Assembly: GCA_020444065.1 (NCBI GenBank)
Contig: JAHLLQ010000006.1
Coordinates: 1 to 64,000, forward strand
Reading direction: 5' to 3'
DNA from: a bacterium
GTDB taxonomy: Bacteria; Sumerlaeota; Sumerlaeia; SLMS01; JAHLLQ01
DNA: 64,000 nucleotides
Below the pieces are notes generated by a model. That model was given only the letters and a program-made list of their open reading frames with translations, had not been told where the DNA came from and ran no database searches. Position numbers and translations under genes: made by a program. Shown in pieces: positions 227 to 30,460 of the stretch. Each line of letters opens with the position of its first letter. The first letter of the stretch is position 1.

Positions 227-315
227 TGGCGGTGGAGGAGGGATTCGAACCCCCGGTACCGTTGCCGGCACACCCGCTTTCGAGGCGGACAGCGCAAATG
301 TGCCTGCTCTCCCCT
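227..315 (-). tRNA. tRNA-Ser(CGA), probably defective 5' half
   Basis: On the minus strand the anticodon arm is intact (stem TCCGC/GCGGG, loop CTCGAAA, anticodon CGA). The long class-II variable arm, the T arm with a TTCGAAT loop, an acceptor 3' strand CTCCACC, discriminator G and encoded CCA are all present. The 5' acceptor strand should read GGTGGAG. The best in-register candidate is AGGGGAG, which leaves two mismatches, and the D arm is unusual with a loop lacking the usual layout. It is either a diverged functional tRNA or a decaying copy. The sister tRNA-Ser(GGA) at 9043-9132 is fully regular. Confidence 0.6.
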
Positions 316-9042: not shown

Positions 9043-9132
9043 TGGCGGAGAGAGGGGGATTCGAACCCCCGATAGAGTTGCCCCTATACACGCTTTCCAA
9101 GCGTGCGCCTTAAACCGCTCGGCCATCTCTCC
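9043..9132 (-). tRNA. tRNA-Ser(GGA)
   Basis: A regular 90-nt class-II tRNA. The acceptor GGAGAGA pairs with TCTCTCC, the D arm contains GAGCGG, and the anticodon stem CACGC/GCGTG holds loop TTGGAAA (anticodon GGA). A long variable arm, a T arm with loop TTCGAAT, discriminator G and encoded CCA complete it. It decodes UCC/UCU. Confidence 0.97.
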
Positions 9133-27290: not shown

Positions 27291-27356
27291 TGGTGCCAGG
27301 GGGGGACTTGAACCCTCACGCCCTTACGGACTGCGGATGTTAAGCCCGCTGCGCCT
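27291..27356 (-). pseudogene. Defective tRNA-Leu(TAA) copy lacking the D arm
   Basis: The sequence matches the intact tRNA-Leu(TAA) at 30374-30460 over about 66 nt in the same orientation. Shared parts are the 3' CCA, acceptor 3' strand, T arm, variable arm (CGGACTGCGG region) and anticodon loop CTTAACA. The remaining 5' side passes directly from a CCAGG acceptor-like stretch into GCGCAGCGGG, so the D arm is missing. It cannot fold as a normal tRNA. It probably records duplication or integration at the tRNA gene. Confidence 0.85.
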
Positions 27357-27500
27357 GGGACGAACAAGCTGAACGGAGTCAGTCTTCCGTGGAGGGGGCT
27401 GGGTCTAACCCATTCAGTCCCACAGGTTGCGTTTTTCTCTTTCTTTCGGCCTGCCGAAGAGACACAATGCGGCTCAGGAAAAATAAGAGGAGGATTTCGA

Positions 27501-28217
27501 ATGGCTCGATGCACAGCACCAGTTTACGGCCACAGAACAGAAAGCGGGAGGGCGAACTGCCCTGTTTGTGGTCGCCAAGGCCGCGGTTACGGTTACAGAC
27601 CGACTTACTCCCCTTCCTATGCTTCTCCATTGGCTGGAAGCAACTCGTCCGGTAGCGGAAGAGTGCAGGGCAGCGGCAAGCGCACAACGAGAGCGACGTG
27701 GTCCAGACCGGGTTCTCCCGTTCTCTATACGCCCACCCAGTTGCAGGATCTCACTCCGATCCGCGAACGTATCGAGGTCGTCGCGAAGGAGAAGCCTGAG
27801 CTCTGTGATGCGTTTCTCTGCCACGCCTGGGCCGACAGGCAAGGAGTGGCCAAGGATCTGCACGATTTACTCAATGCGCGTGGGGTTCGAGTCTGGTTTA
27901 GTGAGAATGACATTCCTCTCGGCGTTCCGTTTCTCCGCAGCATAGACAAGGGCTTGGCGAAGTCGCGCGTGGGACTAGTGCTCGTAACCCCGGCGCTGCT
28001 GCAGCGACTTGCGGAAGAGAGCGTTGCTGACAAGGAGCTTTCGGTATTACTCCAGCGTCAGCAACTAGTTCCAATCGTTCATGGGACAACTTACGATGCT
28101 CTCCGCGATGTCAGTCCTCTGCTCGCCTCGCGAAACGGGGTAAGTACAGCGGAAGAAGATACACTGGAGAAGGTCGCAGAGAAGCTCGCAGATTTCCTCA
28201 TCGTACGGCCCTGCTGA
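27501..28217 (+). CDS. TIR-domain protein with N-terminal zinc-ribbon-like motif
   Basis: A 238-residue protein; AGGAGG precedes the ATG. The N-terminus has Cys4, His11, Cys20 and Cys23 (CTAPVYGHR...CPVC), resembling a small zinc ribbon, then a Ser/Gly/Tyr-rich linker (25-75). The TIR domain spans about 102-225: AFLCHAW (strand A), RVWFSENDIPLG (BB-loop region), LVLVTPALL (strand D) and LVPIVHG. In NAD-cleaving TIRs a glutamate lies a few residues before the BB-loop glycine. Here Glu135 and Asp137 are the candidates. TIR proteins serve in NAD depletion or signalling in bacterial defence. No dedicated TIR-defence partner such as SIR2 or Argonaute is adjacent. Confidence 0.85.
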   Translation: MARCTAPVYGHRTESGRANCPVCGRQGRGYGYRPTYSPSYASPLAGSNSSGSGRVQGSGKRTTRATWSRPGSPVLYTPTQLQDLTPIRERIEVVAKEKPELCDAFLCHAWADRQGVAKDLHDLLNARGVRVWFSENDIPLGVPFLRSIDKGLAKSRVGLVLVTPALLQRLAEESVADKELSVLLQRQQLVPIVHGTTYDALRDVSPLLASRNGVSTAEEDTLEKVAEKLADFLIVRPC

Positions 28218-28614
28218 AATGACAGGATCATGAAAACACAGGGATCTAGGATGCCGTGTGAGCACTAGTGTTCCGAGTTTTGGGACACGCCATCAAGCGC
28301 GTACTCTTCCACACTGCGGCGAACACTGGTGCGATCGTCGCGGCTCGGACGGATGGGATGTGGTTGTTGACTGTGACCCACGAGAGCGAACTGATCGCGT
28401 GGCCCAGCGCTTGTTCGATCGGCGTCACGCTGATTCCCAATTCAAGAGCTCGGGCAGTACAAGCCAGAGGCCGCCGGGTCGTCGGGGAAGCGAGCAATTC
28501 AATCAGGATGATGTGAGCAGAACGGCTCCGCTGGGGCGTCAGAACGGAGAGAGCGAGGAAAAGGGGTTTCACGTCCTATGTTCGGGTATGGGTCTGATGC
28601 TGAGAGTCTCGAGT
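28218..28614. other. Island interior without a supported gene
   Basis: About 400 bp lie between the TIR gene and a small minus-strand ORF. Overlapping open frames of 80-125 residues occur on both strands, but none has a convincing ribosome-binding site or recognisable domain. It may hold decayed coding sequence. Confidence 0.4.
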
Positions 28615-28764
28615 TCAACTGCTGCTCGCTAACTCGGGATGATTGCGGACTTCGATTTCATCATTGAGTCTAAAACCGCGATCGATCTGTTCCGCGGACT
28701 GGATCTGATAGTTGCGCCATGCACAGAATCTTGCAGGGGACAGCTTCGGGTCTTCAGTCCACAT
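28615..28764 (-). CDS. Small hypothetical ORF coupled to the Nudix gene
   Basis: A 49-residue frame begins MWTEDPKLS at an ATG inside the last 11 bases of the Nudix gene, so its start overlaps that gene's stop as in translational coupling. The composition is protein-like (RFCAWRNYQIQ, GFRLNDEIEVR) and probably helical. No family is recognised and there is no membrane segment. It is reported because of the overlap geometry; it may be a chance frame. Confidence 0.35.
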   Translation of the reverse strand: MWTEDPKLSPARFCAWRNYQIQSAEQIDRGFRLNDEIEVRNHPELASSS

Positions 28765-29383
28765 CCGCCTTAAGCTGTCCCTCCTTGACCATTTGAGCCA
28801 TCCGCTTGATCTGTTCCGCGGTAACCCGGGATACGGAAAGCTCTGGCAGATCTTCCGGATCGAAGAATCGGACCTCAGAAGTCTCTGTGGATGCCGCGGC
28901 CTCGCCGCCGGTAATCTCGCAGAGGAAGAACATCTTGTAACAGTGCCTCGGCTCGGGTGGACGATGATCATGACGACGCCGATCGAAGACAGCCAGCAGC
29001 CGTTCTACCCGCGTTTCAAAGCCGGATTCCTCGCGGATTTCCCGCACTATGTTTTCAGCAGGAGTAAGACAAACGTCAGCCCACCCTCCCGGCAAAGTCC
29101 ATCGGCCGTAGTCCGCTATCTCGCGCACCAGAAGCACTCTTCCTTCGCGCAATACTACACCCCGAACTTCGACTTTTGGAGTAACGTATCCTGTCTCATT
29201 GACGAAGAGATCAGGAATTTCGCCGCGCGGAATTCCAGATCCTTCAGCCATCATCTCCATGGCGAGTTGTTCCACCTGTTCATATCGATCGATCTCATAG
29301 TGATTATCGGCATAGTGAAGTCCCGTTCGCGCGATCGCCTGCAACTTCATGGCGATGTCCAGCCATTTAGGATATTCTTCCAT
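28754..29383 (-). CDS. Nudix hydrolase with Nudix_hydro_N domain
   Basis: A 209-residue protein. Residues about 5-50 match the N-terminal helical Nudix_hydro_N domain (KWLDIAMKLQAIARTGLHYA...DRYEQVEQL). The catalytic Nudix domain follows, with LPGGWADV leading into REIREESGF (114-122), which carries the REUxEExGU metal-binding glutamates. The upstream conserved glutamate of the Nudix box is Leu106 here. Relatives act on ADP-ribose, CDP-choline and similar nucleotides. ATGs at 29383 and 29386 are both possible. Being convergent with a TIR gene that may produce ADP-ribose is suggestive but unproven. Confidence 0.88.
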   Translation of the reverse strand: MEEYPKWLDIAMKLQAIARTGLHYADNHYEIDRYEQVEQLAMEMMAEGSGIPRGEIPDLFVNETGYVTPKVEVRGVVLREGRVLLVREIADYGRWTLPGGWADVCLTPAENIVREIREESGFETRVERLLAVFDRRRHDHRPPEPRHCYKMFFLCEITGGEAAASTETSEVRFFDPEDLPELSVSRVTAEQIKRMAQMVKEGQLKADVD

Positions 29384-29566
29384 CATTCTCCAGACCACCT
29401 GGGAATTCGTTCAGAAGCCAAAGGGCATCTTCCATCGACTGGCCTTCACGGGCAAGGGATAGCTAAGGAAGAAGGTCGCTGATTCTTTGCGCGACTAGAC
29501 AGATCGGCGGAATCGTTCTCATCCCCTTACCAGAGTGGTATGCACAGGCCACCGCAAATCAAACTC

Positions 29567-30133
29567 TCATTTGGGAGCAGAAGGTGGCCTCTCGGACGCC
29601 AGTTGGGCAAAATCCTTCCTCTGTTCCTCGTGAGGCTTGTGAAGCCCTCTATGCATCAAGGTCACAAGAGAGAACACCATCAGTGGCAATACGGCAGTGG
29701 CGAGTAAGCACTTCCATGGATCGGCACCGCACCAGACTGGCCAATAGGCCACGAGTCCAAGAACCGCCATCGATATGATAAGAGCAACGAGAAGATTGAC
29801 TCCCATTCCGTAGGTCAGAAGAAATCCTCCGCTGTATCTTGTCTTATTAAGTCTGTTGTAACATCCTCTTCCGTTCTCGATCTTATCCGCAGCCAACTGG
29901 CATGCGTTCATCAACATGCGACTACGGTGTTCAAAAGCCCAGAAGACGATCGAGATGACGATTACGGCTGCAAAGAGACCTGTTCTGATGGGCGCTGCGT
30001 CATACCTTGAGTAGGCTAGGGCCACGCCTGCAAGGGCCGTTAGATAGCCCGCAAAGGATTTGTCTCGCCAAGACCCAAAATAGCGCCAAGTCTTGCCTGT
30101 CTCTTGGTAGAGTTCGGAATCTTCAATCGCCAT
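29567..30133 (-). CDS. Four-TM membrane protein of unknown function
   Basis: A 188-residue protein with predicted membrane segments at about 26-43, 50-68, 108-130 and 140-160. Between the two pairs is a conserved-looking cytoplasmic stretch (FEHRSRMLMNACQLAADKIENG). AAGGA lies 8 nt before the ATG at 30133; a TTG at 30148 would add five residues. No enzyme motif is seen. Its place in the tRNA-flanked island beside TIR and Nudix genes makes an accessory or defence-related membrane role possible, but that is guesswork. Confidence 0.7.
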   Translation of the reverse strand: MAIEDSELYQETGKTWRYFGSWRDKSFAGYLTALAGVALAYSRYDAAPIRTGLFAAVIVISIVFWAFEHRSRMLMNACQLAADKIENGRGCYNRLNKTRYSGGFLLTYGMGVNLLVALIISMAVLGLVAYWPVWCGADPWKCLLATAVLPLMVFSLVTLMHRGLHKPHEEQRKDFAQLASERPPSAPK

Positions 30134-30373
30134 GTCGAGATCCTTCAAATCGCGCTGTCGCGAGAGTTACCTGCGAGCTCGGATCAATTGGTTGTCATTG
30201 TCCCTGAAATGCGTGAATGCCCGCAATGGAAATGGCGAATATAATAGGTGATTGAAGAGTCCGTTTGGAAGACTGAATCATGTACAAATGTTTCGATTGA
30301 TCTTCGGGAATCGATGAGGTGTCAGGAGTATGAGAAGCGAATTCACCAACTGCTGCTCTGAAGAAGTGTGGTC

Positions 30374-30460
30374 TGGTGCCCGGGGGGGGACTTGAACCCC
30401 CACGCCCTTACGGACTGCGGATTTTAAGTCCGCTGCGTCTGCCGATTCCGCCACCCGGGC
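30374..30460 (-). tRNA. tRNA-Leu(TAA)
   Basis: A regular 87-nt class-II tRNA. The acceptor GCCCGGG pairs with CCCGGGC, the D arm contains GGAATCGGCAGAC, and the anticodon stem GCGGA/TCCGC holds loop CTTAAAA (anticodon TAA). A variable arm, T arm GGGGGTTCAAGTCCCCC, discriminator A and encoded CCA follow. It decodes UUA/UUG. Its 3' two-thirds is duplicated at 27291-27356. Confidence 0.97.

What the first reader, a model, noticed from the sequence alone, without database searches (positions are those of the whole stretch)
27291..30460. Small accessory island bounded by a defective and an intact tRNA-Leu(TAA)
About 66 nt of the tRNA-Leu 3' portion is repeated in the same orientation 3.1 kb away. 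The left copy lacks the D arm. The enclosed cargo (TIR, Nudix, four-TM protein) is accessory in type while both flanks are ordinary chromosome. This is the classic geometry of site-specific integration at a tRNA gene, but no integrase is inside. It could be a minimal defence hotspot or a decayed element.
Basis: partly seen in the sequence, partly recalled or inferred. Interest (0 to 1): 0.6.

Follow-up and report, generated by a model that had tools for sequence, protein, structure and literature searches.

The report
Integrase-less mini-island in tRNA-Leu gene
In an uncultured Sumerlaeota bacterium, a 3 kb DNA segment carrying a TIR-domain (defence-type) gene and two others sits between a working tRNA-Leu gene and a leftover copy of its tail, the usual scar of DNA that inserted itself into a tRNA gene and no longer has its insertion enzyme; this is a known kind of element.

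Summary
An intact tRNA-Leu(TAA) (30374-30460, minus) is followed 3,017 nt beyond its 3' end by a same-orientation copy of its 3' part (27291-27357; tRNA positions 20-87, 91% identity, E 2e-16). There is no homology outside the repeat and no integrase between. The enclosed 3.0 kb is low in G+C (54.1% against 59.6 +/- 2.1%, 2nd percentile). It carries a solo TIR protein (about 60% identical to plasmid-borne TIR genes), a Nudix hydrolase found in only 4 of 38 class genomes, and a membrane protein found in none of them. The best reading is an old tRNA-targeted integrative element that lost its integrase or is moved in trans, i.e. CIME-like. Context supports this: in the same genome tRNA-Glu(TTC) bounds a 1.35 kb one-gene, integrase-less islet with a perfect 24-nt repeat, and tRNA-Pro(GGG) bounds a 22.7 kb island with two integrases. 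In a same-family genome the same tRNA-Leu(TAA) is followed by three 3' copies separating different cargo. No tRNA had such a copy upstream or inverted. No genus-level relative was available, so an empty site was not seen. Function in defence is inferred only. New member of a known kind; modest interest.

The parts
30374..30460 (-). intact tRNA-Leu(TAA), CCA encoded; island-proximal end (reconstituted target gene)
   Evidence: ARAGORN; Rfam RF00005 60.5 bits
27291..27357 (-). displaced 3' part of tRNA-Leu(TAA) (positions 20-87), distal direct repeat, mutated and non-functional
   Evidence: alignment with sharp loss of homology on both sides
27358..30373 (.). island interior, 3,016 nt, GC 54.1% (1.9th percentile of 422 genome windows)
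27501..28217 (+). solo TIR protein with N-terminal C-H-CxxC motif; full-length match to a PADLOC ThsB profile; catalytic-type Glu region ADKEL conserved
   Evidence: PADLOC PDLC00424 335 bits; Pfam TIR_2; plasmid homologues about 60%; alignment
28218..28753 (.). 536 nt without a recognisable gene between TIR and Nudix stop codons
   Evidence: no family matched; no integrase remnant recognised
28754..29398 (-). Nudix hydrolase with Nudix_N domain (3q1p-type phosphohydrolase)
   Evidence: Pfam; PDB 3q1p E 1e-51; homologues in 4 of 38 class genomes
29567..30148 (-). small multi-helix membrane protein of no known family (start TTG 30148, or ATG 30133)
   Evidence: no Pfam/PADLOC family, no homologue in class, plasmids or viral contigs; hydropathy; model low confidence

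Best explanation
The segment 27291-30460 is an old integrative element (genomic islet) that entered the chromosome by site-specific recombination at the 3' half of tRNA-Leu(TAA). The incoming element carried its own copy of the tRNA 3' half. Crossover rebuilt an intact tRNA at one end and pushed the former 3' half to the other end, where it drifts without selection. The integrase gene is now absent, either lost by deletion or never carried because integration was done in trans. The element is therefore CIME-like: att-type repeats and cargo without recombination or transfer genes. The cargo is intact: a horizontally spread solo TIR protein, probably an NAD-consuming phage-defence protein, plus a Nudix hydrolase and a small membrane protein. 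Shown here: anatomy, absence of integrase, foreign composition, patchy distribution, recurrence. Inferred: integration by a tyrosine recombinase, loss versus trans-mobilisation, defence role.
For: Same-orientation 3' copy beyond the tRNA 3' end, ending at the encoded CCA and with no homology beyond either end. Island GC is at the 1.9th percentile; the part next to the tRNA is at the 0.1th. TIR (full-length family) and membrane genes are unique in the relatives searched and Nudix is patchy. TIR homologues sit on plasmids, mostly beside integrases or transposases. In the same genome, tRNA-Glu(TTC) has a 24-nt perfect 3' copy 1,351 nt downstream enclosing one TIR-like gene with 49.4% GC, and a terminator-like sequence lies beyond the displaced copy. 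tRNA-Pro(GGG) has a 26-nt copy 22.7 kb downstream with two integrases inside. The same-family genome G002 has three 3' copies after tRNA-Leu(TAA) bounding different integrase-less cargo. Control: among 44 tRNAs no copy lay upstream or in the opposite orientation on the same contig, within the stretches searched.
Against: No empty site in a close relative: nearest genomes are same-family and not syntenic. No recognisable integrase remnant and no arm-type repeats next to the window's copies. The repeat begins at position 20, further 5' than the anticodon-region starts seen in most other copies here. Tetranucleotide composition is only mildly unusual.
Confidence: 0.82

Rival explanations
1. Tandem duplication of tRNA-Leu(TAA) followed by truncation of one copy and unrelated gene acquisition between them.
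For: Only one diverged partial copy is present and no integrase is found.
Against: No homology beyond the 3' part on either side. The copy is a clean 3' part ending at CCA, in line with several other 3'-only copies in this genome and in relatives, and never 5'-only copies in the own genome. The enclosed DNA is compositionally foreign.
Confidence: 0.08
2. An active non-autonomous cassette: integrase-less islets with tRNA 3'-half ends are mobilised in trans by integrases resident elsewhere in the same cell (for example those at tRNA-Leu(AAG) or tRNA-Pro(GGG)). This is the 'still mobile' version of the best explanation, so the two overlap.
For: The own genome holds 8 PF00589 matches, including an integrase abutting tRNA-Leu(AAG) (L049:8847-10265). 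In G002 and G001 a GTTGCAA arm repeat is shared by integrase-less modules and an integrase-adjacent att end. The tRNA-Glu islet repeat is perfect, so that event may be recent.
Against: The window's repeat has diverged to 91% and the left copy is mutated. No arm sequence is shared between the window's island and any integrase locus; the G002-type arm is absent from this genome.
Confidence: 0.15
3. Chance similarity or conserved T-arm consensus only.
For: tRNA T arms resemble one another, and short matches to other tRNA-Leu genes exist.
Against: 68 columns at 91%, E 2e-16, including anticodon loop and variable arm specific for Leu(TAA); the next best tRNA (Leu AAG) matches at only 72%.
Confidence: 0.001

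Closest known systems
CIME (cis-mobilizable element), as defined in PMC5704250
   Same: Flanked by att-type direct repeats at a tRNA 3' end, no integration or transfer genes
   Different: Ancestry from an ICE/IME and retained att function are not shown; only 3 kb; repeat diverged
Dehalococcoides ssrA genomic islands without integration module (PMC3146451)
   Same: Islands bounded by 3'-end repeats of an RNA gene, some tandem, many without integrase
   Different: Target is tmRNA and repeat 20 bp; integrase there is a serine recombinase; cargo is reductive dehalogenases
Additive flexible island of Methylophilaceae at tRNA-Lys (PMC10872708)
   Same: Recurrent 3'-end tRNA repeats with variable cargo, sizes down to 330 bp
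   Different: 20-nt repeat, other tRNA and other phylum
Thoeris ThsB TIR proteins (PADLOC PDLC00424)
   Same: Full-length profile match of the TIR protein
   Different: No ThsA-like gene in the island or its neighbours; homologues inspected on plasmids are also solo genes

Membership tests
tRNA-integrated genomic island (general) | direct repeat of tRNA 3' end, same orientation, beyond the intact tRNA's 3' end | tested here: met
tRNA-integrated genomic island (general) | foreign composition and patchy cargo | tested here: met
   GC 1.9th percentile; cargo absent or rare in class
tRNA-integrated genomic island (general) | integrase gene inside or adjacent (usual, not obligatory: decayed islands lack it) | tested here: not met
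   no PF00589 in window; no phage-type integrase in PHROGs
tRNA-integrated genomic island (general) | empty site with one tRNA copy in relatives | tested here: inconclusive
   no syntenic relative; G003 and G004 tRNA-Leu(TAA) have no copy in the stretch read
CIME (cis-mobilizable element) | no integration and no transfer genes between two att-type repeats | tested here: met
CIME (cis-mobilizable element) | functional attL/attR, can be mobilised by a neighbour element | not testable with these tools
   needs excision assay or circular-junction reads
CIME (cis-mobilizable element) | derived from an ICE or IME | not testable with these tools
   no remnant genes left
Tycheposon | tRNA boundary plus tyrosine recombinase | tested here: not met
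   boundary met, no recombinase; definition as used in PMC10872708
Thoeris anti-phage system | ThsB TIR protein | tested here: met
   PDLC00424 335 bits full length; note the N-terminal half is specific to this solo family
Thoeris anti-phage system | adjacent ThsA effector | tested here: not met
   neighbours are Nudix, membrane protein, beta-helix and cytochrome; elsewhere in the genome not tested

The most novel reading that the evidence does not exclude
In this Sumerlaeota lineage very small, integrase-less cassettes with tRNA 3'-half ends, often carrying TIR-type defence genes, are a standing class of non-autonomous elements moved in trans by resident tRNA-specific integrases and accumulated in tandem at tRNA genes.
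Probability: 0.17. Interest if true: 0.6.

Novelty: new member of a known kind. Interest (0 to 1): 0.36.

Why it matters
It gives a clean, minimal example of defence-type cargo held between tRNA repeats without an integrase in a poorly studied phylum, and shows that the pattern recurs in the genome (tRNA-Glu) and in the family (tRNA-Leu array in G002). That makes the question whether such islets are dead remnants or trans-mobilised cassettes testable with reads and excision assays.

Tried and rejected
DNA comparison of the locus with 40 relatives found essentially only tRNA-Leu genes. Synteny of the tRNA-Leu neighbourhood with family and order members was absent. A genome-contig scan with the flanking helicase gave one Sumerlaeota contig (72%) whose synteny stops after the alpha/beta hydrolase, before the island. 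Searching 28218-28753 for an integrase remnant gave nothing. The membrane protein had no homologues and its single-sequence model is too poor for a fold search (pLDDT 60). The G002 arm motif was looked for in the window and own genome and is absent. A fold of the sequence beside the left copy is no better than shuffled. A Thoeris filing was rejected for lack of an adjacent ThsA. A first idea that the fragment at 227-288 belongs to tRNA-Ser(GGA) was dropped: it is 100% identical to tRNA-Ser(CGA) on another contig.

Full report
What is there. The window lies in contig C6 of a 5.2 Mb genome; its held relatives comprise 38 class members and one further member of the phylum. The only contig found in the public genome collection with a close helicase homologue is a Candidatus Sumerlaeota MAG, so I take the organism to be Sumerlaeota. 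An intact tRNA-Leu(TAA) with encoded CCA lies at 30374-30460 on the minus strand. Its 3' part, positions 20-87, recurs at 27291-27357 in the same orientation, 3,017 nt beyond the 3' end of the gene (91.2% over 68 columns, E 1.7e-16 in 1.39 Mb). Alignment of 179 nt around both copies shows homology only inside that block. The left copy has lost the 5' acceptor strand and most of the D arm and has mutations elsewhere; Rfam and ARAGORN do not recognise it. The beta-helix gene on the left ends 8 nt from it.

The cargo. Three intact genes are enclosed: a TIR protein (27501-28217+), a Nudix hydrolase (28754-29398-) and a small helical membrane protein (29567-30148-). The TIR protein matches a PADLOC ThsB profile over its whole length (335 bits) and has full-length homologues of about 60% identity on plasmids of Pseudomonadota and Paenibacillus. 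In the five plasmid loci inspected it stands alone, with integrases or transposases nearby in four of them. The family shares an N-terminal C-H-CxxC motif and the ADKEL stretch that holds the catalytic-type glutamate (that this glutamate is catalytic is inferred from TIR NADases such as AbTIR). In the 40-genome phylum set no other genome has the full-length TIR family, none in the class has the membrane protein, and only four of 38 have a close Nudix. There is no integrase: none of the PF00589 matches in the genome falls in the window, and no other recombinase family matched. The island interior has 54.1% GC against 59.6 +/- 2.1% for windows of equal size around tRNA genes (1.9th percentile). 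The 975 nt next to the tRNA has 50.7% (0.1th percentile). Tetranucleotide distance is only mildly unusual (6% of windows are further out).

Is this a pattern? I fetched about 20 kb on either side of nearly all 44 tRNA genes of this genome and searched each tRNA against all of it, and also searched the tRNA set against the whole genome. Copies outside tRNA genes are 3' parts only. On the same contig as their parent they lie beyond the 3' end in the same orientation: Leu(TAA), and Glu(TTC) with 24 nt, 100%, 1,351 nt away. Pro(GGG) with 26 nt, 100%, 22.7 kb away was found with a further stretch. None lies upstream or inverted. The Glu islet holds one gene on the minus strand, TIR-like by PADLOC (E 4e-5), has 49.4% GC, and a GC-rich inverted repeat with a T-run lies just beyond the displaced copy, as expected if insertion pushed the tRNA 3' end and its terminator away together. 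The Pro(GGG) island holds two integrases. So this genome holds both integrase-bearing and integrase-less tRNA islands. Orphan 3' parts of Ser(CGA), Gly(CCC), Pro(TGG) and Ala lie elsewhere.

The same tRNA in a relative. In G002 (same family) tRNA-Leu(TAA) is followed by three 3' copies (positions 31-87) at about 4.4, 8.6 and 13.2 kb, separating TetR/FG-GAP, LysR/enoyl-CoA hydratase/dehydrogenase, and sigma-factor-like cargo; no integrase was found in the nine main ORFs scanned. Each copy is preceded by a conserved arm containing GTTGCAA-N3-GTTGCAA. The same arm precedes tRNA-Asn copies in G002, a diverged form precedes a tRNA-Arg copy in G021, and the motif lies between tRNA-Gly(CCC) and an integrase in G001. 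This suggests that integrase-less modules there keep the recognition arms of an integrase. The window's island has no such arm. No copy is seen in the stretches read after tRNA-Leu(TAA) of G003 and G004.

Mechanism and standing. The best account is site-specific integration at the tRNA 3' half with rebuilding of the tRNA, then loss (or absence from the start) of the integrase. By published usage this is a CIME-like islet (PMC5704250). Integrase-less islands bounded by RNA-gene 3' repeats are known in Dehalococcoides (15 of them at ssrA; PMC3146451), and very small tRNA-Lys islands in Methylophilaceae (PMC10872708). The steps shown are anatomy, composition, distribution and recurrence. The steps inferred are the enzyme, its loss, and any defence role of the TIR protein. 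The main gap is the absence of a genus-level relative: the nearest contigs are not syntenic, and even the genes flanking the island are not conserved, so an empty site could not be shown.

Noticed in passing
window 227-288 (-): 62-nt 3' part of tRNA-Ser(CGA), 100% identical to the gene at C1:515404-515493 on another contig; it also lies in island-like geometry 8.8 kb beyond tRNA-Ser(GGA) 9043-9132, with a 2,587-aa Big_5/MG2-type ORF between and no integrase.
   Followed up: partly
L076:51-1502 (own genome C1:321137-322588): tRNA-Glu(TTC) with a perfect 24-nt 3' copy 1,351 nt downstream enclosing one TIR-like gene, GC 49.4%; a terminator-like sequence lies beyond the copy.
   Followed up: yes
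own genome C4:388383-411223 (part in L152): tRNA-Pro(GGG) island of 22.7 kb with 26-nt perfect repeat and two PF00589 integrases.
   Followed up: partly
L039:4338-17748 (G002:C255): Three tandem tRNA-Leu(TAA) 3' copies with conserved arm GTTGCAAAAAGTTGCAAGTTTCAGCGTG before each, bounding integrase-less cargo modules.
   Followed up: yes
L148:10331-15718 (G002:C155), L149:1088-1253 (G021), L147:8776-8933 (G001): The arm repeat recurs before tRNA-Asn 3' copies, in diverged form before a tRNA-Arg 3' copy, and between tRNA-Gly(CCC) and an integrase: one att-arm type used with several tRNA targets.
   Followed up: partly
L049:8847-10360 (own genome C11): Integrase-like gene (472 aa) ends 8 nt from the 3' end of tRNA-Leu(AAG); a tandem-repeat array lies at L049:670-1365 on the same contig.
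   Followed up: no
own genome C1:846884-846939 and 847110-847131: Orphan 3' parts of tRNA-Pro(TGG) (95%) and tRNA-Ser(GCT) (22 nt, 100%) 170 nt apart in opposite orientation.
   Followed up: no
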